Shown piece by piece: positions 5,110-21,392 of a DNA stretch of 21,392 bases. The stretch covers positions 1-21,392 of the forward strand of contig JAQMWT010000299.1 of assembly GCA_029834535.1 (NCBI GenBank). The letters run 5' to 3'. Both the position numbers and the translations under genes were made by a program. The notes under the pieces were generated by a model, which was given only the letters and a program-made list of their open reading frames with translations, searched no databases and was not told the DNA's origin. Every line of letters starts with the position of its first letter. The first letter of the stretch is position 1. The stretch is from Chrysophaeum taylorii (taxonomy: Eukaryota > Sar > Pelagophyceae > Pelagomonadales > Pelagomonadaceae).

Positions 5110-5126
5110 TTTAAAGGTCGACAAGT

Positions 5127-5510
5127 GCAGGCCAGTAAGTTCACCTAGTCCCAATCTCTAACCCCAGTAAGTTCACCTAATCCTAGTAAGTTTCATATAA
5201 GTTCACACTGGTCAGTAAGTTCACCTAGTCCAAATCTCTAACCCCAGTAAGTTCACCTGGTCCAGTAAGTTTCATATAAGTTCACCTGGTCAGTAAGTTC
5301 ACCTAGCTCACACCCACTCCTTCGAGCTCGTCGCTCTCGCCTCCGCCAATCTAAGGCGCTTCGATCCGCACACGCCGCTAACCTTTGAGTTTACTCTAAA
5401 ACCCCCAGTAAGTTCACCTGGTCCCAGAAAGTTCACCTGGTCACTCAGTTCACCTAGTCCCAATCTCAAACCCCAGTAAGTTCACCTGGCCCAGCAAGTT
5501 AACCTATATT
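5127..5510. repeat. Minisatellite of left arm, copy A
   Basis: Irregular tandem array with consensus CAGTAAGTTCACCTGGTCC, with variants CACCTAGTCC and AAGTTTCATATAAGTTCAC. About nine GTAAGT motifs lie on the + strand. A non-repeat block of about 90 bp (5310-5400, starting at CTCACACCCACTCC) sits inside the array. The same array recurs in inverted orientation in the right arm and in copies B and C. Confidence 0.85.
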
Positions 5511-5535
5511 GCGCGTGTAGACGCCGGGAGGGGGC

Positions 5536-6091
5536 TTATAGGTATTGCGCAGCACGTGTGGGGTAGGGTGGAGTCGTCGACTCAGAAGAGCATATCCTCC
5601 GGGTTGCCAATCGACAGAGAGCCACGTAGAGCTGGACGTGGCAGAAGACGGGCTTGGGCAAGAGGACGCCGACATTGCGGGGCGTCTGCCTCTGGCTCTT
5701 GTTGATCGTTTGGCGTCGGTGGGGCTTGAGGGATACAGGTTGGAGGAGCCTCGGTGACACGACACGATCGATCATGTATCTGGTACCGTTGCAGTGGCCG
5801 TGCGACGGGTCGAGGTTGCGAAGACTTTAAGCTCGCGATCAAAGTCAGCATGCCGTTGATTGTCAGGGAGTTGAAAACTCGACTGTAAAGAGCGAGGCGT
5901 CGGCTTCCGCCCCAACCTAGTCAGCCGAAAGAACTCCGACGCCTCGTCTTCGGGAAAAAAAGGCCGCGGTCATGCGCGCGTTGTCAGCATCGACAACATC
6001 GTTTCGACGGGGCGTGAGAATGGCGCGCTGAAAGAGCCGCCGCGGGTCGTGGAAATAGTCTGCGAGGTCGCGTAGACGGCTTGGAGGATCA
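5536..6091 (-). pseudogene. PIF1/Helitron helicase C-terminal fragment, left arm
   Basis: Read on the minus strand, this arm encodes the end of a superfamily 1 PIF1-type helicase as found in Helitron Rep-Hel proteins. Clear signs are QTINKSQRQTP (helicase motif V region), then VGVLLPKPVFCHVQLYVALC (motif VI region). Further upstream in the reading direction, after a frame change, is AILTPRRND, typical of the segment before motif V. There is no start, the N-terminal ATPase motifs are absent and frames change, so it is a relic. The typical Gly of the SQGQT motif is replaced by Arg in this arm but kept in the right arm. Confidence 0.7.
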
Positions 6092-6128
6092 ATGCCTGGC
6101 TCGCGGGCCTACCTGATCCTTACCCTAA

Positions 6129-6344
6129 CTCGGGGGACAAACAGGACGTCACCCTTCGTTGCACATACGTCCGGCGGCAGCATGCGTACGACCTACGGGC
6201 GGGGCCCGTCCTCTCTTCGCCTGCCCCACGCCTCGGCGATGACCCCGACTAGGTCCCGCGTACTTATCTCCGCCCGTCAGGCACATCCCTCATACCCCAC
6301 AAACCTACCCACATCCTTCATGCTCCCCACACACACCCCCCCTC
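6129..6344. other. Unique centre of palindromic element A
   Basis: This single-copy spacer separates the two arms. Its first part, up to about 6187 (GGGGGACAAACAGGACGTC onward), is also present in copy B up to the retrotransposon insertion point, so it belongs to the left-arm type. The rest is C-rich (ACACACACCCCCCCTC near 6330) and contains no recognisable gene. Confidence 0.6.
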
Positions 6345-6409
6345 TTAGGGTAAGGATCAGGATCAGGTAGGCGCGAGAGTAAGGATCAGGTAGGCGCGAG
6401 AGCCAGACA

Positions 6410-6969
6410 GTGATCCTCCAAGCCGTCTACGGCGACCTCGCAGACTATTTCCACGACCCGCGGCGGCTCTTTCAGCGCGCCATTCTCACGCCCCGTCGAA
6501 ACGATGCTGTCGATGCTGACAACGCGCGCATGACCGCGGCCTTTTTTTCCCGGAGACGAGGCGTCGGAGTTCTTTTCGGCTGACTAGGCTGGGTCGGAAG
6601 ACGACGCCTCGCTCTTTACAGTAGAGTTTTCAACTCCCTGACAACCAACGGGATGCTGACTTTGAGCGCGAGCTTAAGGTCTTCGAAACCTCGACCCGTC
6701 GCACGGCCACTGCAACGGTACCAGATACATGATCGATCTTGTCGTTGTCACCGAGGCTCCTCCAACCTGTATCCCTTAAGGCCCGCCTACGCCAAACGAT
6801 CAACAAGAGCCAGGGCCAGACGCCCCGCGAGGTCGGCGTCCTCTTGCCCAAGCCCGTCTTCTGCCACGTCCAGCTCTACGTGGCTCTCTGTCGATCGGCA
6901 ACCCCGAGGATATGCTCTTCTGAGTCGACGACCCCACCCTACCCCACACGTGCTGCGCAATACCGATAA
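6410..6969 (+). pseudogene. PIF1/Helitron helicase C-terminal fragment, right arm
   Basis: The inverted partner of the left-arm fragment reads outward on the plus strand. The block at 6410-6580 gives LQAVYGDLADYFHDPRRLFQ followed by RAILTPRRNDAVDADNARM, which matches the Helitron helicase segment containing 'ILTPRN..VD..N'. It stops at a TGA near 6582. After a frame change, 6739-6969 gives RQTINKSQGQTPREVGVLLP and then KPVFCHVQLYVALCRSATP, i.e. motifs V and VI. These motifs make the family assignment firm. The stop, the frame change and the missing N-terminal half make it non-functional. Confidence 0.72.
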
Positions 6970-7004
6970 GCCCCCTCCCGGCGTCTACACGCGCAATATA
7001 GGTT

Positions 7005-7300
7005 AACTTACTGGGCCAGGTGAACTTACTGGGGTTTGAGATTGGGACTAGGTGAACTGAGTGACCAGGTGAACTTACTGGGACCAGGTGAACTTACTGG
7101 GGGTTTTAGAGTAAACTCAAAGGTTGGCGGCGCGTGCGGATCAAAGCAGCTTAGATTGGCGGAGGCGAGAGCGACGAGCTCAAAGGAGTTGGTGTGAGCT
7201 AGGTGAACTTACTGACCAGGTGAACTTATATGAAACTTACTGGGACCAGGTGAACTTACTGGGGCTAGAGATTGGGAGTAGGTGAACTTACTGGCCTGCA
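7005..7300. repeat. Minisatellite of right arm, copy A (inverted)
   Basis: Array of CCAGGTGAACTTACTGGG units, the reverse complement of the left-arm minisatellite, including the TGAACTTATATGAAACTTAC variant and the same internal non-repeat block (about 7105-7200). Confidence 0.85.
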
Positions 7301-7338
7301 CTTGTTTAAAGACAAACAGACAGACAGACAAACAGACT

Positions 7339-8208: not shown

Positions 8209-8964
8209 CTAGGGCCCCGCCGCTGTCGAAGTCGACGAGCCCTCCAGTTTCGACACGCGCGCGTCCATGGCGCTCATGGAGGCGTTGATGTCTTCGAGGA
8301 GGGCCACGATGTTCTGGGGGTTGACGTCAGAGGCAACTGGCAAGGTCTCCGGGGGTGTCCCAGTGGGGTCGGAGGGGGGAGTGCGCTGCCCATTACTGGT
8401 GGCCGATGGAATAGGTGGAGCTGAAGAGCCCGAGGACGCGGCTGTGTAGTCGGCAGCTCCAAACACAGTCGGGCTCGCGCCCAACTGGACGAGCCCGAGC
8501 TTCATCATGTTGAGCTCGTTCTCGACCTTGTCGAGACGGTTGTCGACCTTGTCGAGACCTTGCTTGAGCTCGTTCTCGACCTTGTCGAGACGGTTGTCGA
8601 CCTTGTCGAGACCTTGCTTGAGATCGTTCTTGAGCTCGTTCTCGACCTTGTCGAGACGGTTGTCGACCTTGTCGAGACCTCGCTTGAGATCGTTCTTGAG
8701 CTCGTTCTCGACCTTGTCGAGACGGTTGTCGACCTTGTCGAGACCTTGCTTGAGATCGTTCTTGAGCTCCTTGTAAGCGGCGAAACCAGCACCTATGGTG
8801 CCGATCACAGTTGTTGCGCCTAGTGTAGCGACATCCCAGTTGACAGCCGCGCGTTTTGGGGCCGATATAGGCCCTGGCGCGGACGTCGACGCCAGCTTGA
8901 AGTCCTGCTTCACAAAGCTTCGAACAACGACGAGCGTTCTGGTCGCGCTGAGGAGGGAGCGCAT
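8209..8964 (-). CDS. Membrane-anchored coiled-coil protein with 22-residue tandem repeats
   Basis: Intact 251-residue frame from ATG (8964) to a stop at 8209-8211. The N-terminus (MRSLLSATRTLVVVRSFVKQ) is rich in Arg/Ser/Leu and free of acidic residues until position 21, so a mitochondrial-type targeting peptide is possible. One hydrophobic segment at residues 45-64 (VATLGATTVIGTIGAGFAAY) could span a membrane. It is followed directly by four repeats of ELKNDLKQGLDKVDNRLDKV-type sequence (residues 66-149), three of 22 and one of 18 residues, which should form a long coiled coil. A Pro/Ser/Thr-rich linker (about 175-212) leads to a second short amphipathic helix (NIVALLEDINASMSAMDARV). The family is not recognised; the architecture would suit a membrane-tethered structural or oligomerising protein. 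Copy B ends 29 bp upstream of the start codon, so the original promoter has probably been displaced. Confidence 0.7.
   Translation of the reverse strand: MRSLLSATRTLVVVRSFVKQDFKLASTSAPGPISAPKRAAVNWDVATLGATTVIGTIGAGFAAYKELKNDLKQGLDKVDNRLDKVENELKNDLKRGLDKVDNRLDKVENELKNDLKQGLDKVDNRLDKVENELKQGLDKVDNRLDKVENELNMMKLGLVQLGASPTVFGAADYTAASSGSSAPPIPSATSNGQRTPPSDPTGTPPETLPVASDVNPQNIVALLEDINASMSAMDARVSKLEGSSTSTAAGP
8518..8769 (-). repeat. 66-bp in-frame tandem repeats in the coiled-coil gene
   Basis: Three 66-bp units and one 54-bp unit encode the coiled coil. The units are nearly identical in bases as well as residues (recurring GACCTTGTCGAGACGG). One unit differs by Arg for Gln (KRGLD). Near-identity in silent positions points to recent expansion or gene conversion. 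Confidence 0.9.
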
Positions 8965-9010
8965 CTCGTCTACCGAACCTAAAAAGCCGGTCTTTAAAGG
9001 TCGACAAGTG

Positions 9011-9390
9011 CAGGCCAGTTAGTTCACCTAGTCCCAATCTCTAACCCCAGTAAGTTCACCTAATCCTAGTAAGTTTCATATAAGTTCACCTGGTCAGTAA
9101 GTTCACCTAGTCCAAATCTCTAACCCCAGTAAGTTCACCTGGTCCAGTAAGTTTCATATAAGTTCACCTGGTCAGTAAGTTCACCTAGCTCACACCCACT
9201 CCTTTAAGCTCGTCGCTCTCGCCTCCGCCAATCTAAGGCGCTTCGATCCGCACACGCCGCTAACCTTTGAGTTTACTTTAAAACCCCCAGTAAGTTCACC
9301 TGGTCCCAGTAAGTTCACCTGGTCACTCAGATCACCTAGTCCTAATCTCAAACCCCAGTAAGTTCACCTGGCCCAGTAAGTTAACCTATA
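9011..9390. repeat. Minisatellite of copy B
   Basis: Same array as at 5127-5510, with CAGTAAGTTCACCTGG units in the same order and with the same internal non-repeat block. It matches the copy A left arm almost base for base. Confidence 0.85.
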
Positions 9391-9417
9391 GTGCGTGTGT
9401 AGACGCCGGGAGGGGGC

Positions 9418-9973
9418 TTATAGGTATTGCGCAGCACGTGTGGGGTAGGGTGGAGTCGTCGACTCAGAAGAGCATATCCTCCGGGTTGCCGATCGACAGA
9501 GAGCCACGTAGAGCTGGACGTGGCAGAAGACGGGCTTGGGCAAGAGGACGCCGACATTGCGGGGCGTCTGCCTCTGGCTCTTGTTGATCGTTTGGCGTCG
9601 GTGGGGCTTGAGGGATACAGGTTGGAGGAGCCTCGGTGACACGACACGATCGATCATGTATCTGGTACCGTTGCAGTGGCCGTGCGACGGGTCGAGGTTG
9701 CGAAGACTTTAAGCTCGCGATCAAAGTCAGCATGCCGTTGATTGTCAGGGAGTTGAAAACTCGACTGTAAAGAGCGAGGCGTCGGCTTCCGCCCCAACCT
9801 AGTCAGCCGAAAGAACTCCGACGCCTCGTCTTCGGGAAAAAAAGGCCGCGGTCATGCGCGCGTTGTCAGCATCGACAACATCGTTTCGACGGGGCGTGAG
9901 AATGGCGCGCTGAAAGAGCCGCCGCGGGTCGTGGAAATAGTCTGCGAGGTCGCGTAGACGGCTTGGAGGATCA
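9418..9973 (-). pseudogene. PIF1/Helitron helicase C-terminal fragment, copy B
   Basis: The minus strand reads QTINKSQRQTP then VGVLLPKPVFCHVQLYVALC, as in the left arm of copy A, including the same Arg in place of Gly in the motif V region. The sharing of this change places copy B and the copy A left arm in one subfamily, apart from the right-arm type. There is no N-terminal half and no start codon. Confidence 0.68.
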
Positions 9974-10059
9974 ATGCCTGGCTCGCGGGCCTACCTGATC
10001 CTTACCCTAACTCGGGGGACAAACAGGACGTCACCCTTCGTTGCACATACGTCCAGCGG

Positions 10060-10417
10060 TGTGGCGGTAATAACCATTCCCCCCCCCACTTATGTGCCTG
10101 TTACCTGCCTGTTACCTTGAATTTGGCGGTGTCATGCTTGACAGCCACACCTGCTTCTCCAAGGATACTCCTGTACCGAGAACCTGTGTTGCTCTTGCCG
10201 ATCTAGCATATCTTGCTGGATCACCCATTGGAATCTATCGATTCTTGTTGTTTCCTTGAAATTACCCTCAATTAAATGTTCGACAGCATGGCGGGAGCGG
10301 AGTGTGAGCGCTTGGTTGGACGTGTGGTGGAACCACCCGTGGTTCAGGACCGTTGAGCGGTCACGTTGTGACCGACGGTTAGGCGAAGAGGGGCGGGTGA
10401 GCTGAGTTTCCACCACA
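10060..10417 (+). repeat. 5' LTR of unit 1
   Basis: The boundary is set by the TGTGGCGG start shared with 16824 and the CCACCACA end, which is the inverted complement of the start at seven of eight positions. A primer-binding site follows two bases later. The LTR contains two hairpins: GAACCACCCGTGGTTC (10330-10345), and GGTCACGTTGTGACC (10359-10373) nested in ACCGT...ACGGT. Both are kept in the other LTR. Confidence 0.8.
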
Positions 10418-10419
10418 GG

Positions 10420-10437
10420 TGGTCTCAGAAACGGGAA
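10420..10437 (+). promoter_or_regulatory. Probable tRNA primer-binding site
   Basis: TGGTCTCAGAAACGGGAA lies two bases after the LTR, the normal place, and begins with the TGG that pairs with a tRNA CCA end. It resembles the plant initiator-Met site TGGTATCAGAGC but with mismatches, so the primer tRNA is not identified. The same sequence follows the second LTR at 17184. Confidence 0.55.
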
Positions 10438-10910
10438 CTGATAGTTTCCGGGGTTGTTGTTACGCGAATCCCGGACTGTCAGTCTCCCGCGCCCGGCGGC
10501 GAATCGGTGTTCAGGCTTTGAGCGAGTGTAGAGCCGACGTGTTTGTGGGTGCGGTTCCGGCGAATCGAGGGTGTCACTCCGATACGCGAAGCGGAACAAG
10601 CGTTCGGCGTGTTCGAACGTGAGCGGACGTTGTCGTGAGTCTCGAAAAAAAAAACAATCGCCTGGGGAGCGGGGAGTAAGCCATCGCTCCCAGAACGGCA
10701 GACCGGGGAGGACAACCATATCCTCAAAACAACCGAGAAAAAAAAAAAAGAGTTCGCCTGGGGGAAACAGCCATCTCCCAGAACAGGTAGTTCGGGGAGG
10801 ACGACCATATCCTCTAGCCAACCGGCTCAAGCGCGCAGTCAAGCAGTAGCCGGCAAATTGCTGCTTTGACGACAAAAAAAAAAAAAAAAAAAAAAAAAAA
10901 ACAAAATTAG
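10438..10910 (+). other. Retrotransposon leader with duplicated stem-loop block and A-tracts
   Basis: This is a non-coding leader between the primer-binding site and gag. Two imperfect tandem blocks (about 10644-10735 and 10738-10825) each consist of an A-tract, a CGCCTGGGG...CTCCCAGAAC hairpin, CGGGGAGGAC and CCATATCCTC. A third, pure run of 28 A (10874-10901) ends nine bases before the gag ATG. The corresponding run in unit 2 has 15 A. The blocks are candidates for RNA packaging, dimerisation or internal initiation, by analogy only. Confidence 0.6.
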
Positions 10911-11410
10911 ATGACGGCTCCGTGGTTTCGGGACGCCCAGGCACGCCTGCGGCGAGTCATCACCCCAGTGATGGAGTCATCCCTCCGAAGACGGCTAGAT
11001 GTCGGGACGGGTGGCGAACGAGTGGAGATACCAGTGGAGAGTGCGGCGGATACGGCTGTCCGGCCAGAAGTGCGCACTCCAGAAAGTGAAGAAGTGGGGA
11101 CCATGACAGCCCCAGAACCTATGCCTGCAACGGTAGTCTGGGGCGAGCCAACGCCTATGCCCGTGCACGTACGAGAAGACGAGACGATCCGTACGGAACG
11201 ACTACGGTCCGACCCAGAAACTCCAGCTGCAATCCGGGAGCCGGTGACTCGAGCACCGCCGGCCCCACCTTACTCTGCGATTGCTGGAGAATAAAAGATA
11301 GAGGGGGATCCCGCGCTTATGCGCACCCTCCTCGAAAAAGTTGAAGAATATCGCTCTAAGATCCACTATCTCGAAGGGACGATGGAATACGAGCGATAAG
11401 AGTCTCGGAT
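10911..11410 (+). pseudogene. gag: gag remnant of unit 1
   Basis: The ATG at 10911 opens a Pro/Glu/Thr-rich, probably disordered amino-terminal region (MTAPWFRDAQARLRRVITPV). The frame is stopped by TAA at 11292-11294, where unit 2 has GAA, and continues in the same frame as a charged helix (LLEKVEEYRSKIHYLEGTME) to a second TAA at 11397-11399, again GAA in the second unit. About 870 bp present in unit 2 (19460-20326) are missing after position 11404, so most of the capsid-like part is gone. The same frame then runs into the methyltransferase, so gag and pol were one frame. Confidence 0.65.
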
Positions 11411-11411
11411 C

Positions 11412-11960
11412 TTGGCCCCGGACCAAACGCTAGACCAGACGTTCCAACTTGCCTTGCAATTGGACGCGATGCCAGAGGTGGGGACGTCCAGCGACAAGCA
11501 TGAAGATCCAAAAAAGACCAAAGTCCCAAAAGACAAGCCCCACCGTACGCGTAAGGAATGCCATCCTTATGTGCTGGAGCTTGTCTGTGACGCGCCACTG
11601 ATGAGAGGTCAGGCCTACCGCCCTTATCGCTCGCTCTACCCTGATTTGCGTGTGATACCAAACTCTTTGTCGTCATATTGCTTCCACGAGCCGAACGAAG
11701 TTTACGTGGCTGTGGAGCATGTTGGCACAGGACCTATTGGACTCGACCCTGAGGTACCCATGATCGAGGGAGAGATCATACCACATAAAGGTTGCGTCAA
11801 AGTACAGCTGGAAGCCGCTGAAGAGGATACAAGAGTCTGTTTTGCGACTGCTTCAGCTGACGAAGACGAGACGGAAGTCGAGGAGGAGGTCTTAGCTGTG
11901 AGACCCCCTCCTGAACCTCCTCCAGAAGAAGGAACAAAAAAAATGTCGAAGGAAGAAGCC
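11412..11960 (+). pseudogene. Protease-like segment without the D-S/T-G motif
   Basis: This is in frame with gag and the methyltransferase. It has no ATG of its own at the frame opening; the first is at 11469. The stretch PYRSLYPDLRVIPNSLSSYC followed by VYVAVEHVGTG and GEIIPHKGCVKVQLE has the spacing and strand pattern of a retropepsin. The expected active-site Asp-Thr/Ser-Gly before VIP is not present. The same change is seen in unit 2 near 20540. An acidic and proline-rich linker (ADEDETEVEEEVLAVRPPPE) leads into the methyltransferase. The protease reading is tentative; the segment could simply be the end of Gag. Confidence 0.35.
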
Positions 11961-11989
11961 ACGACTCAGGAGCTGATTGATAGGCGTGC

Positions 11990-12870
11990 TTCTTTGGTTT
12001 GGATTCCAATCACCTATATCAGCGTCGTCGTTTATTTCGCCGGCGCTGGTGGATCGAGTTTGGGGATCCAACGATGCAATGAGATCTATGGAACCTCTTT
12101 TCGCATTGTGTTGGCTTTGGACTCATGTCCACAAGCGCGAGCTGTTTTCCAGCTCAACTTTCCTAAGATCCCGTACGTGCTTCATGACCTGGGGAAATCT
12201 CATCGTCGTACGTACGATGTGGTCTTGTCATACCTACATAAGGATCATTGGAGACATTCGTACTTCCACGCCAGTCCTCCTTGTATTTATGGCTCGACCG
12301 CGAACCTGCACTACAGGGACGCGCGCAAGGGTGCTGCCATCACTTCGTGGGTTCTGCGTCATTTCCGCAATGCACCTCACGTGATTGGACGATGGACGTT
12401 AGAGCAGGAGCCATCCGTGATTCCTTTATCCATCACAAGTTCTACATTCCGCGTGTGGTTGACTTTTACAGTATCACCCCGGAATTGCTGTGTTCGCGCA
12501 CGCGCCTACTTGGCAGCAATGTGCGCTTGTCATTGCCACTACTGACGCGAGTGCCACCCAATTTGCAGGACCGTTTCGGGCCAGCGTTGGGCTTTCCGAG
12601 TGGTCACCCTCTGATTGTGGTGAACAGTTTTTCATCTACGCGACCAGCCATCGGCCCCACTTTCACGGTGACGCGCAATAAGTTGCAGATGGGCCCTCAC
12701 TTTTCCAATGTGCGACCACTGTCCGTGGAAATGCATCAGGAGATCATGACCGTCCCCACGACGTGGAAATGGGGTAGCATTTCGCAATCAGCGGCTATGA
12801 AGATGCTGGGGAGCATGGTACCTCCTGCGACTATGATGCGCATCGCACTCGCAGTGCATAATTCATTTGA
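11990..12870 (+). pseudogene. C5 DNA cytosine methyltransferase domain within the retrotransposon polyprotein
   Basis: This domain would transfer a methyl group from S-adenosylmethionine to cytosine C5 in DNA. Motif I is VVYFAGAGGSSLGI (12026-12069), which binds the cofactor. Motif II is ALDSCPQARAVFQLNFP. Motif IV is HASPPC with the catalytic Cys at 12282-12284. Motif VI is TLEQEP at 12396-12413, with its Glu. After a one-base frame change between 12413 and 12425 the domain continues as SRTRLLGS (motif VIII-like, about 12494), RPLSVEMHQEI (motif IX, about 12712) and KMLGSMVPPATM (motif X, about 12805). All landmarks are in canonical order over about 285 residues, so the fold is complete apart from the frame change. 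It lies between Gag and reverse transcriptase. Related captures are published for dinoflagellate and charophyte retrotransposons. Whether this one is of the same origin needs a tree. Confidence 0.85.
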
Positions 12871-15688
12871 TCCCGTGATTCGCAATCAGGGTCAACTACG
12901 GAATATCACTACCGCGACGATGGCCAATCCCGATTACCGTCTTCTACGGTTTTCGTTTTTTGCTATCGACTCGCGTATTCCCACGCTCGACCCTGACACC
13001 CGATGTGTGTCATGGATCCATCAAGACGACTTCTACTCCAGCCAAACTTCAAACGTCACCGCTGTTCCCACCGCCACCCCACCACCACCGTTCGTTCTAT
13101 CGCCTGGGACGGCTCAATCTTTTTCAGGGGGCACCGTCGCCACTGCTGTGATGCAGAGCAACCAAGTCTCTACGACCGCTGAAGAGGACGGCACATTGAA
13201 GGAGCGACCAGCGTATTTCAAGACGTACGCAGTTCCGTGGGCGGACGCGCCTAACGACGAACATGGTTATCCTGTACCAGTGGTGCCTCCTCATTTAGCT
13301 GATCAAGAGAGCATGCAAGTCATCCCTCCGACCGTCGCGCAGGTCGAAGAGGTGATGGCTGCGCTGGGCATTACAGACCATCCCGCTTTAAATGAGGATG
13401 AAAAACGGATGATGCGACATTTGCTTTCCTACTCGTGGGCATTTTTTGATGACGTGATGAGACCCGTTGATTCGCCTGAGGTCACCCTCCGGTTCAAAGA
13501 GGACAATCCGAACCCGATTAAGTTGTCGCCGTATCGGTTGTCAAAGGAGAAGATCGAGTGCTTGAGACTTCAAATCGAGGAATGGAGTCGAGACGGAGTT
13601 ATCCGTCCCGCACACTCTCCTTGGGGTTTTCCTATCCTGATGCTGCCTAAGAAAGGGGCTGAGCCAGGCACTTCCAACGCTTACAGAGCGGCTGTCGACC
13701 TGCGGCGCCTCAACAAATTGCTCAAGGATGACAGTTGGCCGAGCGTGAGCATGACTGACGCGTTGATGTTTCTCACCGACAAGTTTCGTCGTTCTAGCAT
13801 GGACATCCGATGGGGTTACCACAATTTGCGATTGTCAGCGGAAGCGCAGGATGTAGTGACCTTCACTAGTCCTTTGGGAGCATTCAGTTATATGCGTTTA
13901 CCTTTGGGAGTCAAGCCTGCTGGCAGCCTGTTCTGCAAGCAACTCAACACCGATCTGTCGAAGTGGTTGTACCGTGACCTAGTGGCTTATATCGACGACA
14001 TTTTGGCTGGGCATGCAGACACTAAGAGTCATTTGCAATGCCTTGTTCAAGTCATTCCCCACTTGGCGTCGAGAGGGTATAGCGGCAAGGTTAAGAAGAT
14101 CCACTTCATGAAGGAGGTCATTGAATTCTTGGGGCATTTGTCTACCCCGAATGGACTTCTCCCGTCACCAAGATCGACGGAGGCCATCCGGCATATGCCA
14201 ATCCCTGGTACTTTGTCAGATGCTGATCCCAAAAAGCAAGTCCGCTCCTTCCTTGGGATGGGGAGTTTTTGTCGTCGTTATGTGCGCAATTTCGCGCGAG
14301 TCGCGGAGCCGTTAAGACAGTTGACTTTGCCAGATGTTAAGTTCGAGTGGACGAAAGAGTGTCAAGAGGCCTGGGATGCCATCATCGAAGCTATTGTTAC
14401 TAAGGGCATTTACCATCCGGACTACTCATTGCCGTTCTACATTCGGACAGATGCATCTGCGCATGGATTAGGCGCTTACTTGTTTCAGAAAGTGCCAGTC
14501 GTTGGTGACGATGGAAAAGAACGGGTGGAGGAGAGAGTTATCGAGTACTGGAGTCGAACTGTGCCTAAGTCGATGAGGAAGTATGATCCTCGGCGCTTGG
14601 AACTCCTCGCAGTACTCTCTGCTCTCGAAAATTTCCGATTTTATATCGAAGGTCATCAGACAAAGTTAGAGACGGATCATCGTAACTTAACGTTTCTGCG
14701 GGATTCGAATCATACGTCTGGACAGTTAGCACGATGGGCTAGGCGGCTTGCTGCGTTCGACCGGGAGCTCGGATACAAACCTGGAAGCTCCCCGGGCATG
14801 CGCATCCCTGATTGCCTGTCGCGCAATCCAATCGACAAGTTAATCGAGCAGGACGAAGACGGAGAACCGATCAATGAAGCGTATCTGATCTTCCAGGAGA
14901 TCCCCACCGATGTTCCGGGCACAGCGTGCTTCACCTTCTCATCAGTGACGATGTCTCTGTTGTTAGACAGGGAGTATACTGCAGCTCTAGCAGCAGTTAG
15001 TACGCGTCGGAGCGCGCCGCCGCCTCAATTTGCGTACGAAGCCGATCCGGTAGACCCCGTTGAACGGCTCCCTTTTGCTGATCAAGCTGAGGATGAGATC
15101 ACTCTCGAGGAGATAGCTAAAGAACAGATTGAAGACAAGACTTGCACGCAGATCCGTCAGAGCCTCGATTCGGAGCAGAAGGATCCACGCGATAAGCCAC
15201 CCCTGCCGTACGAGATCGAAGACAACGTCTTGTACAAGGTTGACGAGTCAGAATCTCGACGTCTGATTGTGGTCCCACAGTCGATGCAGGAGCGTGTGAT
15301 CACCATGCACCATCGAGGGCTGTTCGGAGGCCATGTGGGACGAGATTCGACAGCGAGCCAGATTTTGGAGCGATACTGGTGGCCCAACGTCATATCGTCG
15401 GTCACCGACTTCATCAAGGCCTGCATCATCTGTCAGAAAGTTCGATCCACTGTGCCGAAGCGCTATGGCCTCCTTTGCCAACCGAATCGCATTTGTGATT
15501 GCTATGTCCTAGGAATGGATCTCTTTGGACCACTGAGAGGAGCCGACTTGCACACGTATATCCTCGCGATGTACGATGCTGCGTCGCATTTTCTCAAGCT
15601 GGCGTTGATAAATACCAAGCATGACTACGCGATCTTGAATGCATTTGTTGACAAGATTGTCCTCGAGGATGTCTCCCGCGGTGTATAG
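12871..15688 (+). pseudogene. pol: Pol: reverse transcriptase, RNase H and N-terminal part of integrase
   Basis: This is open in one frame from the methyltransferase end to TAG at 15686-15688. A Pro/Thr-rich linker (13058-13150) precedes the reverse transcriptase (about 13350-14160): LEEWSRDGVIRPA-type entry, the first Asp in SSMDIRWGYHNLRL, LPLGVKPAGSLF, and the catalytic YIDDIL at 13988-14005. RNase H follows, with RTDASAHGLGAYLFQK near 14444, the Glu in RLELLAVLSALENF and the Asp in LETDHRNLTFL. The integrase zinc-binding domain is HHRGLFGGH...CIICQK (about 15305-15440). The integrase core opens with its first Asp in MDLFGPL near 15517. The frame is lost ten bases before the second catalytic Asp. 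It has no start codon of its own and would be made as part of the Gag-Pol polyprotein. Confidence 0.88.
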
Positions 15689-16788
15689 TTACGGATAATG
15701 GTAGTGAGTTCGCGAACAAGTTGTTCCGGACGTTCGTTCGTCAATTCAACGTTCGATACCGCACGACCATTCCTTATCACCCACAGAGTAATCATACTGA
15801 GCGAGTCAATCGGTTCATCAAGGCCTTCCTCCGGGCCGCGATGGATGAGCAGCGCCAAACGGACTGGTCTATTTTTGTCCAGTACGTGGCTTTCATGTAC
15901 AACCGGATGTATATCCCCGGAACGAAGATCTCGCCGTTTATGATGCGTACCGGCAAGCAACCCCTGTTACCGCCTGATTACAACATCTTGGGCGAACAGC
16001 GTGGTCTGCCTCAATCGCGTCAACAGATCCTGACGGACTTTAAGCACAAGTTTGAATTTTACAGTCAACTCGTCGCTCGGGCACATCAAAAGGCCCAGGA
16101 GATTCAGAAGATCAACTACGACGCCCATCAGATCGACATCCAGTTCTCTCCTGGCGATTATGTCTTGCGTTTTGTGCCTAAGACGCGTCACAAGTTGCGG
16201 CCTATTTGGCGTGGCCCATATATTGTTACCAAGAAGAAGTCTCCAGTCGTTTACGAAATTAAAGACGTGCACGACGACAATGCCGAACCCGTTGTGGTAT
16301 CCGTGCAGCAGATTGTGCCTTTGAAAGTGCCGATAATCGACACCTCTTCGGCCCCCCTGCACACGCCTTCAGACCGCGACCGCTTTAAGCACGGCAAATT
16401 TGTCATTTTTCGGGTCAAAGCACGAGGTAATGCGTGGAAGAAACGTATCTATGTTGCCGAGGTCTATGAAGACTATGATCACGACAATGATACTGTGGCA
16501 TTACACTATTATACTGATCTAGGTTCACGCGATGACCCCCGTGTTTTCGACCCTACCAAGCCTCTAACTGAGCGACAGCTCAGACCAGAATACAAAGATC
16601 GTGACGGATGCAGTTTCACTCGTTTTCGAGCGAACATGGATGGCTGTGAGCCTTGTGTCAACGATTTCCACCCTGACGAGATCGATACCCTTGTCACTAA
16701 CTTCAGCCTCCACAGCAACAAAGTCCCTACGGACATCGCTGAACGCGCTTATCGTCTCATTCGTGAGCGCGACCTTCGTCACCCTTGA
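15685..16788 (+). pseudogene. pol: Integrase core, GPY/F module and C-terminal extension (frame-shifted continuation of pol)
   Basis: The integrase continues in the frame one base back, from IVTDNGSEF (second catalytic Asp at 15694-15696) through PYHPQSNHTERVNRF (Glu at 15799-15801). This gives 34 residues between them, one fewer than the common 35. The GPY/F module is LRPIWRGPYIVTKKK (about 16195-16240). A further 135 residues follow, beginning FKHGKFVIFRVKARG and YVAEVYEDYDHDNDTVALHY. They have the look of a Tudor/chromo-like barrel and then an unrecognised helical end. The stop is TGA at 16786-16788. The break at 15685 fits a single lost base. No slippery heptamer is seen, so programmed frameshifting is unlikely. 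Confidence 0.82.
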
Positions 16789-16823: not shown

Positions 16824-17181
16824 TGTGGCGGTAATAACCATTTCCCCCCCCACTTATGTGCCTGTTACCTGCCTGTTACCTTGAATTTGGCGGTGTCATG
16901 CTTGACACCCACACCTGCTTCTCCAAGGATACTCCTGTACCGAGAACCTGTGTTGCTCTTGCCGATCTAGCATATCTTGCTGGATCACCCATTGGAATCT
17001 ATCGATTCTTGTTGTTTCCTTGAAATTACCCTCTTTTGAATGTTCGACAGCATGGCGTGAGCGGAGTGTGAGCGCTTGGTTGGACGTGTGGTGGAACCAC
17101 CCGTGGTTCAGGACCGTTGAGCGGTCACGTTGTGACCGACGGTTAGGCGAAGAGGGGCGGGTGAGCTGAGTTTCCACCACA
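16824..17181 (+). repeat. Shared LTR (3' LTR of unit 1, 5' LTR of unit 2)
   Basis: This 358-bp repeat matches 10060-10417, from TGTGGCGG to CCACCACA, with about seven differences. It is followed by a primer-binding site and leader rather than by host sequence, so it serves both units. Confidence 0.82.
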
Positions 17182-17660
17182 GGTGGTCTCAGAAACGGGA
17201 ACTGATAGTTTCCGGGGTTGTTACGCGAATCCCGGACTGTCAGTCTCCCGCGCCCGGCGGCGAATCGGTGTTCAGGCTTTGAGCGAGTGCAGAGCCGACG
17301 TGTTTGTGGGTGCGGTTCCGGCGAATCGAGGGTGTCACTCCGATACGCGAAGCGGAACAAGCGTTCGGCGTGTTCGAACGTGAGCGGACGTTGTCGTGAG
17401 TCTCGAAAAAAAAAACAATCGCCTGGGGAGCTGGGAGTAAGCCATCGCTCCCAGAACGGCAGACCGGGGAGGACAACCATATCCTCAAGACAACCCCACC
17501 CAAAAAAAAAAAGAGTTCGCCTGGGGGAGACAGCCATCTCCCAGAACAGGTAGGCCGGGGAGGACGACCATATCCTCTAGTCAACCGGCTCAAGCGCGCA
17601 GTCAAGCAGTAGCCGGCAAATTGCTGCTTTGACGACAAAAAAAAAAAAAAACAAAATTAG
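17182..17660 (+). other. Primer-binding site and leader of unit 2
   Basis: This is the same leader as 10418-10910: primer-binding site from 17184, the two hairpin blocks with A-tracts, and a run of 15 A (17637-17651) nine bases before the gag ATG. A few small differences are present, such as a missing GTT in the GTTGTTGTT run and CCCCACCC replacing CGAG before the second A-tract. Confidence 0.7.
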
Positions 17661-18098
17661 ATGACGGCTCCGTGGTTTCGGGACGCCCAGGCACGCCTGC
17701 GGCGAGTCATCACCCCAGTGATGGAGTCATCCCTCCAAAGACGGCTAGATGTCGGGACGGGTGGCGAACGAGTGGAGATACCAGTGGAGAGTGCGGCGGA
17801 TACGGCTGTCCGGCCAGAAGTGCGCACTCCAGAAAGTGAAGAAGTGGGGACCAGGACAGCCCCAGATCCATGCCTGCAACGGTAGTCGGGGGCGAGCCAA
17901 CGCCTATGCCCGTGCACGTACGAGAAGACGAGACGATCCGTACGGAACGACTACGGTCCGACCCAGAAACTCCAGCTGCAATCCGGGAGCCGGTGACTCG
18001 AGCACCGCCGGCCCCACCTTACTCTGCGATTGCTGGAGAAGAAAAGATAGAGGGGGATCCCGCGCTTATGCGCACCCTTCTCGAAAAAGTTGAAGAAT
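17661..18098 (+). pseudogene. gag: 5' part of gag, unit 2
   Basis: The ATG at 17661 opens the same Gag start as unit 1. A one-base deletion near 17876 (CCAGATCCATG against CCAGAACCTATG) shifts the frame. Downstream of it the other frame reads EEKIEGDPALMRTLLEKVEE without the stop that unit 1 has. The sequence is interrupted at GTTGAAGAAT (18098) by copy C and resumes at 19412 with CGCTCTAAG, at the position expected from 11352. Confidence 0.7.
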
Positions 18099-18262
18099 CT
18101 TCTTAACTACTAATCGACAGATGCTTGTTTGTTTGTCTGTCTGTTTGTCTGTCTTTAAATGTCGACTGCTAAGAGGGGGGGGTCTGTTTGTCTGTCCCTC
18201 GATTTAGGGTAAGGATCATGTAGGCGCGAGAGTAAGGATCAGGTAGGCGCGCGAGCCAGACA

Positions 18263-18846
18263 GTGATCCTCCAAGCCGTCTACGGCGACCTCGCAGACTA
18301 TTTCCACGACCCGCGGCGGCTCTTTCAGCGCGCCATTCTCACGCCCCGTCGAAACGATGTTGTCGATGCTGACAACGCGCGCATGACCGCGGCCTTTTTT
18401 TCCCGGAGACGAGGCGTCGGAGTTCTTTTCGGCCGACTAGGTTGGGTCGGAAGACGACGCCTCGCTCTTTACAGTAGAGTTTTCAACACCCTGACAACCA
18501 ACGGCATGCTGACTTTGATCGCGAGCTTAATGTCTTCGCAACCTCGACCCGTCGCACGGCCACTGCAACCGTACCAGATACATGATCGATCGTGTCGTTG
18601 TCACCGAGGCTCCTCCAACCTGTATCGCTTAAGGCCCGCCTACGCCAAACGATCAACAAGAGCCAGGCCAGACGCCCCGCGAGGTCGGCGTCCTCTTGGC
18701 GAAGCCCGTCTTCTGCCACGTCCAGCTCTACGTGGCTCTCTGTCGATCGGCAACCCGAGGATATCCTCTTCTGGGTCGACGACTCGCCCTACCCACACGT
18801 GCGCAATACCGATAAGCCCCTCCCCGCGTCTACACGCGCACTATAG
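18263..18846 (+). pseudogene. PIF1/Helitron helicase C-terminal fragment, copy C
   Basis: ILQAVYGDLADYFHDPRRLF and RAILTPRRNDVVDADNARM are read from 18263 with no TGA corresponding to the one at 6582, so the frame stays open longer than in copy A. The motif V region TINKSQ is present in the other frame near 18650 but is followed by a small deletion that removes GQT. The motif VI region is also shifted. There is no N-terminal half, so it is a relic. Confidence 0.65.
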
Positions 18847-19400
18847 GTGAACTTACTGGGACCATGAACTTACTGGGGTTTGAGATTGGGACTAGGTGAA
18901 CTGAGTGACCAGGTGAAACTGGGACCAGGTGAACATACTGGTAGGTGGATAGAAAACGAGACTAGCCCGCGCAACGACGGGTCCTACAACGCGTGGGCTT
19001 TTTCCTTTTTTTGCGTGAGGGGGCGAAAGGATGCCGACTTCACTATGGGGACTAGTTCCATCGCGACGATCTCGCGGCATGGCGGCACATACTGCTTGAG
19101 TACAAATGAACATAGCTCAGCGATCCGTTGAGTATGTCTTAGTACAAACTGAAACATAGTTAACGGCTCGTACTAACTTTCTTATCCGACCCTAATACTG
19201 GGGCTTTTAGAGTGAAGGGTTTTTAGAGTAAACTCAAAGGTTGGCGGCGCGTGCGGATCAAAGCAGCTTAGATTGGCGGAGGCGAGAGCGACGAGCTCAA
19301 GGGTGGGTGAGCTGGTGAACTTACTGACCAGGTGAACATATGAAACTTACTGGGACCAGGTGAACTTGCTGGGGTTAGAATTGGGACTAGGTGAACTGCG
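18845..19400. repeat. Minisatellite of copy C, split by a MITE
   Basis: GGTGAACTTACTGGG-type units at 18845-18941 and 19195-19400, shorter and more mutated than in copies A and B. The shared non-repeat block (GTAAACTCAAAGGTTGGCGG) lies at about 19228-19300. Confidence 0.75.
18942..19194. mobile_element. 253-bp MITE, possibly hAT-like
   Basis: This segment is absent from the minisatellite of the other copies. It is flanked by ATACTGG on both sides (18935-18941 and 19195-19201), a 7-bp direct repeat, 7 of 8 if one base more is counted. Removing the segment with one ATACTGG restores GAACATACTGGGGCTTTTAG, which matches the other copies. Its ends are imperfect inverted repeats: TAGGTGGATAGAAAA on the left, and TAGGGTCGGATAAGAAA as the reverse complement of the right. 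TAGGG-type ends and a duplication near 8 bp suggest hAT. There is no coding capacity. Confidence 0.55.
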
Positions 19401-19411
19401 GCCTGCGCCGC

Positions 19412-20330
19412 CGCTCTAAGATCACTCTCGAAGGGACGATGGAATACGAGCGAGAAGAGTGCCAACGCCAATACCAGGGCGAGCTTCAGCGTCGAACGGT
19501 TCAGCATGAACGAGCCGAGAATGAACGGCTTTCGACGAGAAATCGAAGACACGAGACGAGCCAGAAGAACATCACTATCTCTCGATGCTACCCTCGTCGA
19601 GCAACATCGTCGAGAGGCCAGCGGCACGAGGCCGAAGCGCGGCGTGAGCTCAAAGACCACACGAGTCCGAAACAAGCGACCAACATCACGACGTTGATCG
19701 CGCCAGACCGGAACTAGCGGACGACGCCGCGGCGACTCGTGCAGACGACCCCCGCCTCGAAAGCATCCGAACCAATACGGCGGAGGCCCTGCACCTGACT
19801 TCGATCCTTCTGGCGACGATGATGAGTTCGATGATACCATCAGCATCGATAGGGTCCGACGGGGATGCACAGTTGAACTTCCCGACACTCCAGGGCCCTA
19901 TTGCCAAGACGCGACGAAGTACGGACGTGGTGGACAACTGATGCGGATCATCGAGCTAAGGCTCGACCGTCCTTCATGCGCCATGAACATGATCGGTGGC
20001 GAATATCAACGAACATGACTGTTTAACAAGTGGGAAGACGAGCACAAGCCGCATGGAAAGGATTTACGCGGACGACCGAAGGCGGAAATCGCAAGCGACG
20101 AGGGTGGCGGCCAAAATCGAGGAAGCGCTCTATTGCCCTGCCCTCCTCGAGCTACTACAGAGCAACTGGGTATGGTGGTACACGATGACGCAAGGCAACC
20201 TTCCGCTCTCAAGTATCAACAGGTCAAAAATTTGGACTATGGCGACTACTTTAAGAACCGGTGGAACCAAGCGGCGGATGCAAATCTCCGGACATCGTCT
20301 GACAAGCCGACGGACATTCATCTTGCGCGG
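19412..20330 (+). pseudogene. gag: Remainder of gag, unit 2 (decayed)
   Basis: This resumes with RSKITLEGTMEYEREECQRQ and a long charged helix (HERAENERLSTRNRRHETS) that unit 1 lacks. Further traces in various frames include VELPDTPGPYCQDATKYGRG near 19880 and KYQQVKNLDYGDYFKNRWNQ near 20210, followed by ADANLRTSSDKP. These give the only view of the central Gag of this family. No zinc knuckle was seen. The frame is broken several times by small deletions. Confidence 0.55.
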
Positions 20331-21392
20331 ATCGGCCCCGGACCAAACGCTAGACCAGACGTTCCAACTTGCAATTGGACGCGATGTAGAGTGGGGACGT
20401 CCAGCGACCATGAAGATCAAAAGACAAAAAGTCCCAAAGACAGCCCGACCGTACGGCGAAGGAATGCCATTCTTATGTGCTGGAGCTTGTGTGACGACTG
20501 ATGAGAGGTCAGGCCTACGCCCTTATCGCTCACTCTACCCTGATTTGCGTGTGATACCAAACTCTTTCGTCATCATGCACTGAGCCGAACGGGTTTACGT
20601 GGCTGTGGGTATGTGGCAGAACCTATGGACTTGACCCTGAGGTACCGCATGATCGAGAGATGGCGCCACGCGAAGGTTGCGTCAAGTACGGCTGAAGCCG
20701 CTGAAGTTATGAAGAGTCTGTTTTGCGACTGGCAGCTGACGAAGATGAGACGGAAGTCGGAGGTGTCGGCGTGAGACCCGCCTGAACCTCCTCAGAAGAA
20801 GGAACAAAACAAACGTCGAAACCGTTGCCCCCGCCACCCCACCGTTGGTTGTATCGCCTGGGACGACAATCTTCCGGAACACCGTCGCCACTGCGTGATG
20901 CAGAGCAACAAATTCTTACGACCGCTGAAGGGAAGGCACATTGAAGGAGCGACCAGCGTATTTCAAGGCGTGCAGTTCCGTGGGCGGACGCGCCTAACGA
21001 CGAACATCACGCGCCAGTGATGGCGCCTCATTTAGCTGATAAGAGAGCATGCCGTCTCGTCACTCCGACCGTCGCGCAGGTCGAAGGCGGTGACGACGCT
21101 GGTATCCCGCTTTAAATGAGGATGAAAAACGGATGATACATTTGCAGCTTTCCACTCGTGGGCATTTTGATGACGTGATGAGACCCGTTGATTCGCCTGA
21201 GGTCACCCTCCGGTTCAAAGAGGACAATCCGAACCCGATTAAGTTGTCGCCGTATCGATTTGTCAAAGGAAGATCGAGTGCTTGAGACTTTGCAAATCGA
21301 GGGTGAGTCGAGACGGGTGTCCGTCCACGCACTCTCCTTGGGGTTTTCCTATCCTGATGCTGCCCTGAAAGGGGCGACGGGCACTTCCAACG
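20331..21392 (+). pseudogene. pol: Decayed pol start of unit 2, lacking the methyltransferase
   Basis: It matches unit 1 from 11405 to about 11950, then jumps at AAACGTC (20811-20817) to the equivalent of 13051. The whole methyltransferase segment of about 1.1 kb is therefore absent. It continues to the start of the reverse transcriptase (equivalent of 13690) at the window edge. Compared with unit 1 it has dozens of losses of one to a few bases but relatively few substitutions, so every frame is broken. Confidence 0.7.

What the first reader, a model, noticed from the sequence alone, without database searches (positions are those of the whole stretch)
11990..12870. DNA cytosine methyltransferase inside a Ty3/gypsy polyprotein
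Motifs I, II, IV, VI, VIII-like, IX and X of C5 methyltransferases appear in order between Gag and reverse transcriptase, with the PPC catalytic Cys and the motif VI Glu intact. A retroelement that carries its own DNA-methylating enzyme could mark its own cDNA or change host silencing. Capture of such enzymes by retrotransposons has been reported in dinoflagellates and charophytes (de Mendoza and colleagues, 2018). Whether this is one of those lineages or a separate capture is open.
Basis: partly seen in the sequence, partly recalled or inferred. Interest (0 to 1): 0.92.

Follow-up and report, generated by a model that had tools for sequence, protein, structure and literature searches.

The report
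Algal retrotransposons carrying a DNA methyltransferase
In the genome of an alga, a large group of self-copying DNA elements carries, as a regular part of its own machinery, an enzyme of the kind that chemically marks DNA, which suggests that the elements may mark their own new copies.

Summary
Window 12000-12880 encodes a divergent C5 cytosine methyltransferase (MTase) domain upstream of the RT of a Ty3/gypsy element. This copy is a wreck: motifs I-VI and VIII-X lie in two frames, gag is truncated, the protease is missing. It is not a one-off: the same genome (70.8 Mb, photosynthetic alga) holds at least 297 places encoding the domain, in groups A/B, C and D (36-50% identical between groups). 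Open copies exist; 3 of 4 tested pass the Pfam C5-MTase cut-off. The domain is under purifying selection (pN/pS about 0.15 between families; RT about 0.1). Relatives outside this genome are hardly detectable: one weak database hit and an archaeal family by profile. No DNMT1 or DNMT3 chain is among the PDB hits, so it does not look like the DNMT3 captures of charophytes and dinoflagellates, but my tree had no DNMT3 reference. A second, different C5-MTase sits in Ty1/copia elements of the same genome. The only cellular C5-MTases identified are DNMT2 and DNMT5. Most likely the domain methylates the element's cDNA or insertion, which the host then maintains; that is inferred, and a mutation-footprint test gave no support.

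The parts
10060..11349 (+). 5' repeat unit of the element: LTR (about the first 0.85 kb, end not fixed) running on into the start of gag
   Evidence: 96.8% identical to 16824-18098; a gag-like ORF start lies at 10911 inside the repeat, as in L083
10911..11560 (+). truncated gag-like remnant (N part to 11405, C part 11406-11560, middle missing); the protease-like stretch that follows in other copies is absent
   Evidence: blastn of L083: 335-844 = 10897-11406, 1780-1933 = 11406-11560; L002-L006 and L008 match the window only from 11560 and L007 from 11784. Gag by position and a Cys/His knuckle by eye; no Pfam gag hit
11561..11999 (+). acidic linker between the (deleted) protease and the methyltransferase domain
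   Evidence: 98.8-99.2% identical to open copies L004/L005 over 11560-14370
12000..12880 (+). C5 cytosine methyltransferase domain; motifs I-VI in frame 1, a frameshift just after motif VI, motifs VIII-X in frame 2
   Evidence: open relatives
13646..14137 (+). reverse transcriptase (RVT_1)
   Evidence: PF00078 E 3.9e-13
14348..14758 (+). RNase H (RT_RNaseH, RT_RNaseH_2)
   Evidence: PF17917 E 6.7e-25, PF17919 E 7.8e-22
15272..16275 (+). integrase in two overlapping frames (H2C2; core; p58 C-terminal part); a second frame break near 15650-15690
   Evidence: PF17921 E 4.8e-17; PF00665 E 3e-5 and PF22938 E 3.5e-5, both under their cut-offs, in ORF 15652-16788
16824..18098 (+). right LTR, shared with a second element in tandem, running into that element's gag start
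19412..21392 (+). second, tandem Ty3 copy of the same family: gag piece, linker, junction at about 20820-20827 where the MTase module is missing, then RT start

Best explanation
A Ty3/gypsy lineage in this alga carries a C5 cytosine methyltransferase as a standing domain of its polyprotein, between protease and reverse transcriptase. Shown: the domain, its place, its spread through groups A/B, C and D, its conservation under selection. Inferred: it is packaged with RT in the particle and methylates cytosines of the newly made cDNA or of the fresh insertion; host DNMT5 then keeps the mark. This would either make the incoming DNA look like resident DNA or let the element tone itself down. The domain was probably captured once, from a source other than DNMT3, before groups A/B, C and D split. 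My odds: real C5-MTase domain kept by selection 0.95; DNA is the main substrate 0.65; acts on own cDNA or insertion 0.5; capture separate from the known DNMT3 captures 0.8.
For: At least 297 distinct places: 131 A/B, 143 C (134, 3 more, 6 more) and 23 D, merged. Long open frames through the domain: 2129 and 2115 aa, 3067 and 3063 aa. Open copies pass the PF00145 cut-off in 3 of 4; PHROG_116 in 11 of 11; hhalign of A1 with a mostly archaeal C5-MTase family: 96.9%, E 1.4e-10, 256 columns, motifs in register. pN/pS of the MTase: A-B 0.147, C1-C2 0.149; RT piece 0.102 and 0.090; protease piece A-B 0.229. In 32 open copies D41, N102, R106, D107, E135, Q136, E137, R167, R169 and R226 never vary. 80 of 106 A/B RT rows and 22 of 44 C/D-like RT rows have a listed MTase row 0.9-4 kb away (truncated lists); of the 48 rows without, 6 were fetched and 6 of 6 have an MTase or a large part of one upstream. 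Host: DNMT5 (7r76, E 7.8e-130) and DNMT2 (1g55, E 7.7e-39). Precedent: isolated DNMT domains of SymbioDIRS-Dnmt3 methylate CG in yeast (PMC5890265, section 10).
Against: No activity or methylation data. CpG transitions among rare variants are not clearly raised (CG against CHH: 0.0152 and 0.0131 in B, 0.0093 and 0.0093 in C1, 0.0114 and 0.0086 in A; LTR pair 2 CpG of 12 transitions), and CpG is not depleted in the elements (observed/expected 0.99-1.28; GC-rich window part and two host gene regions 1.26-1.51). Motif VI is E-Q-E in 32 of 32, not E-N-V, so chemistry could be altered. Copies without the MTase and protease exist in family A; two share one junction (L047, L048), so element RNA lacking the module can still be copied, perhaps in trans. 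KnitGypsy-Dnmt3 and SymbioLINE domains gave no methylation in yeast, which the authors call inconclusive (PMC5890265, section 10). Deep placement in the tree is unresolved. The D copy tested has no PF00145 hit.
Confidence: 0.6

Rival explanations
1. The domain is an RNA methyltransferase: it modifies the packaged element RNA or the tRNA primer, as DNMT2 modifies tRNA.
For: DNMT2 chains are among the five weak PDB hits of the profile (9hgm E 1.6, 1g55 E 2). No CpG footprint. de Mendoza et al. raise RNA methylation for SymbioLINE (PMC5890265, section 11).
Against: The two best PDB hits are entries called cytosine-specific methyltransferase (8yf3 E 0.022, 3g7u E 0.11), ahead of DNMT2; the closest family found is mostly archaeal. 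All of these are weak, so substrate is not settled.
Confidence: 0.15
2. The domain has lost catalysis and serves as a nucleic-acid-binding or structural part of the particle.
For: E-Q-E in place of E-N-V in 32 of 32 open copies; very divergent, with one database hit at E up to 0.01 among 8000 scored candidates.
Against: The motif VI Glu and the two Arg of motif VIII, which the copy-collecting pattern did not require, never vary in 32 open copies, and pN/pS is low. Cys, motif I and the motif X prolines are also invariant but were required by the pattern.
Confidence: 0.17
3. It is the same DNMT3 capture as in Klebsormidium (KnitGypsy-Dnmt3) or a relative of it.
For: Same element class and Pol position are reported for KnitGypsy-Dnmt3 (PMC5890265, section 9).
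Against: No DNMT3 chain among the 5 PDB profile hits at E up to 10; motif IV is P-P-C-I/V, not the P-C-N that I recall for DNMT3.
Confidence: 0.07
4. A host gene fragment carried by chance in this single copy.
For: This copy is broken and its tandem neighbour lacks the module.
Against: At least 297 places with the domain and selection across families.
Confidence: 0.01

Closest known systems
KnitGypsy-Dnmt3 of the charophyte Klebsormidium nitens (PMC5890265, section 9 read)
   Same: Cytosine MTase domain inside the Pol of an LTR Gypsy element; several copies; Ka/Ks below 0.2 reported there, pN/pS about 0.15 between families here.
   Different: There DNMT3-type, in a streptophyte, with repeats arranged as in DIRS; here a domain that does not look like DNMT3, E-Q-E motif VI, in an alga whose PsaB and one light-harvesting gene are of the red-plastid kind, at least 297 places, groups down to 36% identity.
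SymbioDIRS-Dnmt3 and SymbioLINE-Dnmt of Symbiodinium (PMC5890265, sections 6, 10, 11 read)
   Same: Hundreds of retroelement-borne C5-MTases; SymbioLINE is an orphan too.
   Different: Other retroelement classes (tyrosine-recombinase DIRS, LINE); the DIRS domains are DNMT3.
C5-MTase family around P0001 (Vulcanisaeta, Thermoproteus and others; A2) and PHROG_116
   Same: Nearest relatives detected by profile.
   Different: About 300 aa proteins with E-N-V; 25% identity; distant, not shown to be the donor.
Orphan DNMTs of eukaryotes (PMC12344493, section 5 and passages read)
   Same: C5-MTases outside the DNMT1/2/3/5/6 clades, some in transposons.
   Different: What I read names SymbioLINEs and giant-virus insertions, and DNMT3 in Copia and DIRS elements; it does not mention elements like these.

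Membership tests
C5 cytosine methyltransferase (PF00145) | curated profile score | tested here: met
   32.7, 33.7, 22.8 bits against cut-off 22 for open copies of A, B, C; not met by the two halves in the window (17.3, 17.1) nor by the D copy L040 (no hit)
C5 cytosine methyltransferase (PF00145) | motif I F-x-G-x-G-G, motif IV P-P-C, motif X prolines (recalled) | tested here: met
   32 of 32 open copies, but copies were collected with a pattern that requires these, so circular; present in the window by eye
C5 cytosine methyltransferase (PF00145) | motif VI E-N-V (recalled) | tested here: inconclusive
   Glu kept, Asn-Val replaced by Gln-Glu in 32 of 32
C5 cytosine methyltransferase (PF00145) | motif VIII R-x-R (recalled) | tested here: met
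   32 of 32, not required by the pattern
C5 cytosine methyltransferase (PF00145) | methyl transfer to cytosine | not testable with these tools
   needs expression
Ty3/gypsy retrotransposon | order RT, RNase H, integrase, with LTRs | tested here: met
   Pfam order in ORF 12242-15688 and 15652-16788; direct repeats
DNMT3 (as in KnitGypsy-Dnmt3, SymbioDIRS-Dnmt3) | closest to DNMT3 by profile or tree | tested here: inconclusive
   no DNMT3 chain among 5 PDB hits at E up to 10; no DNMT3 reference in the tree
DNMT3 (as in KnitGypsy-Dnmt3, SymbioDIRS-Dnmt3) | P-C-N in motif IV (recalled signature) | tested here: not met
   P-P-C-I/V in the 11 copies of A1
KnitGypsy-Dnmt3 | DIRS-like arrangement of repeats | not tested
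   direct LTR repeats seen in the window; split repeats not looked for in open copies

The most novel reading that the evidence does not exclude
The alga has no de novo cytosine methyltransferase of its own: the cell keeps only DNMT5 (maintenance) and DNMT2, and the de novo activity in the genome comes from two sets of LTR retrotransposons, Ty3/gypsy and Ty1/copia, each carrying its own C5-MTase. The elements write, the host copies.
Probability: 0.25. Interest if true: 0.92.

Novelty: new variant of a known kind. Interest (0 to 1): 0.72.

Why it matters
Capture of cytosine MTases by retroelements has been reported for dinoflagellates and charophytes. A further setting, with a different (orphan-like) enzyme that is a core pol domain of a whole Ty3 lineage, and another C5-MTase in Ty1/copia of the same genome, would show that such captures recur and can be stable. 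In a genome where the only identified cellular C5-MTases are DNMT2 and DNMT5, it makes a sharp question testable: can methylation be started by transposons and kept by a maintenance enzyme of the host?

Tried and rejected
Structure: AlphaFold2 of the window's own frame-1 half (11988-12425, unchanged) gave mean pLDDT 35.4; not used, no fold search made. Origin: viral contigs gave no relative for A1 or P0001; the first protein search with an open polyprotein fragment gave none of 2555 candidates; the tree left the deep joins unresolved and flags long branches. PDB search of one copia MTase returned antibody and haemoglobin chance hits only; its profile gave weak C5-MTase hits (8yf3 E 0.019, HhaI E 0.11 and 0.2). 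Organism: not named. Plastid contig C697 of 103.6 kb, PsaB closest to PDB chain 9ygv; the light-harvesting gene next to host DNMT2 is closest to 8zo9 VCPI-6. An Aureococcus-like pelagophyte was suspected, but the one Aureococcus genome paper I read (PMC11237714, part 1 of 2: 49.9 Mb, 70.5% GC) does not match in size; left open. Footprint of CpG deamination: no clear signal. Splicing as the cause of the MTase deletions (shared 3' breakpoint): no splice-like ends seen; rejected, cause unexplained. Ten paper searches (two searches were for the organism): among the titles and abstract openings listed (at most 20 a search, of up to 3437 papers found) I saw no report of C5-MTases in LTR elements of ochrophytes; the library holds open-licence papers only. 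One opinion paper says that DAM- and DCM-encoding Ty3/gypsy and DIRS elements occur in, among others, stramenopiles, without naming a case in the passages seen (PMC6338049). Rows dropped: of 8 archaeal loci found 7 are in A2 and 6 in the tree.

Full report
Observation. The window is one whole contig (C299) of a 70.8 Mb, 697-contig genome. A Ty3/gypsy element runs from about 10060 to the right LTR at 16824. Its pol has RVT_1, RNase H and integrase in the Ty3 order. At 12000-12880 lies a C5 cytosine methyltransferase domain. In this copy the first half (motifs I-VI) is in the frame 11400-12545 and the second half (VIII-X) in the frame 12242-15688. Each half alone gives PF00145 at 17.3 and 17.1 bits, under the cut-off of 22. 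Naturally open copies elsewhere in the genome give 32.7 (A), 33.7 (B) and 22.8 bits (C); the D copy gives no hit. All 11 copies in alignment A1 match PHROG_116 'DNA methyltransferase', best E 2e-12; 10 of 11 match TIGR00675 dcm weakly (best E 3.8e-5; in the one shown 22.6 bits against a cut-off of 100.65). A profile of A1 scores P0001 at 36.1 bits; P0001 had itself been found with A1. Of 12 other C5-MTases given, 8 stand above the best of 980 shuffled sequences, seven of them weakly (6.9-14.1 bits against 3.1); the 3 copia domains and host DNMT5 are not among them. hhalign of A1 with eight aligned C5-MTases (P0001 and 7 archaeal loci) gives 96.9%, E 1.4e-10 over 256 columns with the motifs in register. 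So the domain is real and a member of the superfamily, though far out.

State of this copy. It has a frameshift just after motif VI (also in copy L002), a second frame break in the integrase, an internal deletion in gag and no protease. The right LTR is shared with a second element in tandem whose gag is split by a 1.3 kb insertion (18099-19411) and which lacks the MTase module (junction at about 20820).

Copy number and families. Of the 150 rows listed, 131 belong to A/B (52% identity or more) and 19 to C/D. One search lists 134 C rows. One search lists 134 rows: 23 of D (81% or more) and 111 of C, 3 of them new. Six of the 19 low rows are new too. Merged by position: 131 + 134 + 23 + 3 + 6 = 297 places. 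This is a lower bound, since only 134-150 of 695-1007 candidates were scored; it also includes fragments and, by the look of equal offsets, some near-duplicate contigs (C10 and C297, C25 and C521). Between groups the domain is 36-50% identical. Some copies are open over long stretches (2129, 2115, 3067 and 3063 aa). I pick out none as working.

Is the domain a standing part? 80 of 106 A/B RT rows and 22 of 44 C/D-like RT rows have a listed MTase row within 0.9-4 kb (RT rows, 150 scored of 909). The lists are truncated and the C list held no D rows, so I fetched 6 of the 48 'without' cases: 6 of 6 have an MTase or a large part of one by tblastn. Copies that lack all or most of it, among those read, belong to a sublineage of A without protease, to which the left window copy, which keeps the MTase, belongs as well: the tandem window copy, L047 and L048 lack the module; L049 and L050 keep its first 27 and about 52 codons. 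L047 and L048 share one junction; L049 shares its 3' side; L050 differs. For L047 a gag-like stretch lies upstream (L082). Further rows (C248 and C335:26967, contiguous with the tandem copy; C51, C627, C585, C174, with a gap) look alike but were not read. So loss happens, in copies that already lack the protease.

Selection. On open copies, MTase pN/pS is 0.147 (A-B, 42 pairs), 0.149 (C1-C2, 24 pairs), 0.142 within B and 0.071 within C1; RT piece 0.102 (A-B), 0.090 (C1-C2), 0.182 within B and 0.534 within C1; protease piece 0.229 (A-B); within A the MTase value is 0.864 on very few changes. Synonymous sites between families are near saturation (pS 0.65-0.71). Copies were chosen by an open frame and a motif pattern, which favours conserved ones. 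Residues not required by the pattern (D41, N102, R106, D107, E135, Q136, E137, R167, R169, R226) are invariant in 32 of 32; K110 (27 of 32) and G271 (17 of 32) vary.

Host setting. The two best PF00145 hits (123 of 474 candidates scored) are C634, a DNMT2 (1g55 E 7.7e-39), and C621, a DNMT5 with SNF2 domain (7r76 E 7.8e-130; the PDB name of 7r76 is 'DNA repair protein Rad8', and that it is a fungal Dnmt5 is recalled). Of the other 55 rows, 51 coincide with places found by a Ty1/copia-borne MTase query; 4 stay unassigned. That second MTase lies in L043/L044/L046 after a protease-like stretch (by eye) and before an integrase (PF00665 weak, E 0.0041), followed by RVT_2 (E 5e-39) in L073; one search gives 131 matches at 123 places. 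It keeps E-N-V but has a degenerate motif I. Its profile does not match the Ty3 one (hhalign 0.1%); but with only 3 similar sequences it does not match the archaeal family either (1.0%, E 0.052), and both domains hit the same PHROGs 116 and 363. Two captures are therefore my reading from the differing motifs and element classes, and one shared distant source is not excluded. The genome search reads exons without regard to introns, so a host DNMT1, DNMT3 or DNMT6 split by introns could be missed.

Mechanism. Position inside the polyprotein implies packaging with RT. The simplest use is to methylate the cDNA or the fresh insertion; host DNMT5 could keep the mark (that DNMT5 is a maintenance enzyme is recalled). 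In print, isolated SymbioDIRS-Dnmt3 domains methylate CG in yeast while SymbioLINE and KnitGypsy domains gave an inconclusive negative (PMC5890265, section 10). Against: no CpG depletion and no clear excess of CpG transitions here. Rare variants with nearly equal transitions and transversions may be partly sequencing error, so this test is weak.

Known or new. PMC5890265 (abstract and sections 6, 9, 10, 11 read, passages elsewhere) describes DNMT3 in Gypsy of Klebsormidium and DIRS of Symbiodinium and orphan DNMTs in LINEs. PMC12344493 (section 5 and passages read) has these cases, names Copia and DIRS for DNMT3, and describes an orphan class. PMC9998398 and PMC3145265 (passages read) survey stramenopile DNMTs without reporting elements of this kind in what I saw. 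PMC6338049 (passages read) says in general that MTase-encoding elements occur in stramenopiles among others. I file this as a new variant: same idea, a different enzyme, a different host group, whole-lineage retention, and two LTR superfamilies in one genome.

Noticed in passing
L043:1448-2425, L044:2971-3954 (-), L046:1181-2158; L073 for RT: A second, different C5-MTase domain inside Ty1/copia elements of the same genome (131 matches at 123 places); keeps P-C-Q and E-N-V but has a degenerate motif I.
   Followed up: partly
L045 (C621) and L042 (C634): Host DNMT5 with SNF2 domain and host DNMT2; no other cellular C5-MTase identified, 4 PF00145 rows (C193, C395:19786, C216, C683:59821) unassigned.
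   Followed up: partly
L005, L017, L039: Protease-like stretch before the MTase reads D-G-M-A-D where retropepsins usually have D-S/T-G-A (recalled), with a conserved L-L-G-A-R downstream; possibly an altered protease. No Pfam hit for it in L005.
   Followed up: no
window 20430-21392: The contig end is full of small indels against the left copy (35 gap openings in 616 columns), as if little-corrected long-read sequence; other copies of the family differ from each other by 1-3%.
   Followed up: no
L047, L048, L049, L050 against window 11955-13061: MTase deletions with different 5' ends but, in three, the same 3' end; cause unknown, no splice-like ends.
   Followed up: partly
window 5110-7305, 8993-10059, 18099-19411: Several direct and inverted copies of another repeat with short GGTGAACTTACTGGG-type units, one inserted in the gag of the tandem element.
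   Followed up: no
window 8209-9018 (-): ORF of 269 aa with near-perfect repeats giving a coiled-coil-like KNDLKQGLDKVDNRLDKVENEL unit; only Pfam hits below their cut-offs among the 25 shown.
   Followed up: no
window 2716-4731: GC-rich ORF of 671 aa without any Pfam hit at E up to 0.1.
   Followed up: no
contig pairs C10/C297, C25/C521, C6/C268: Matches at nearly the same offsets on two contigs, so the assembly may hold both haplotypes in places and copy counts may be somewhat inflated.
   Followed up: no
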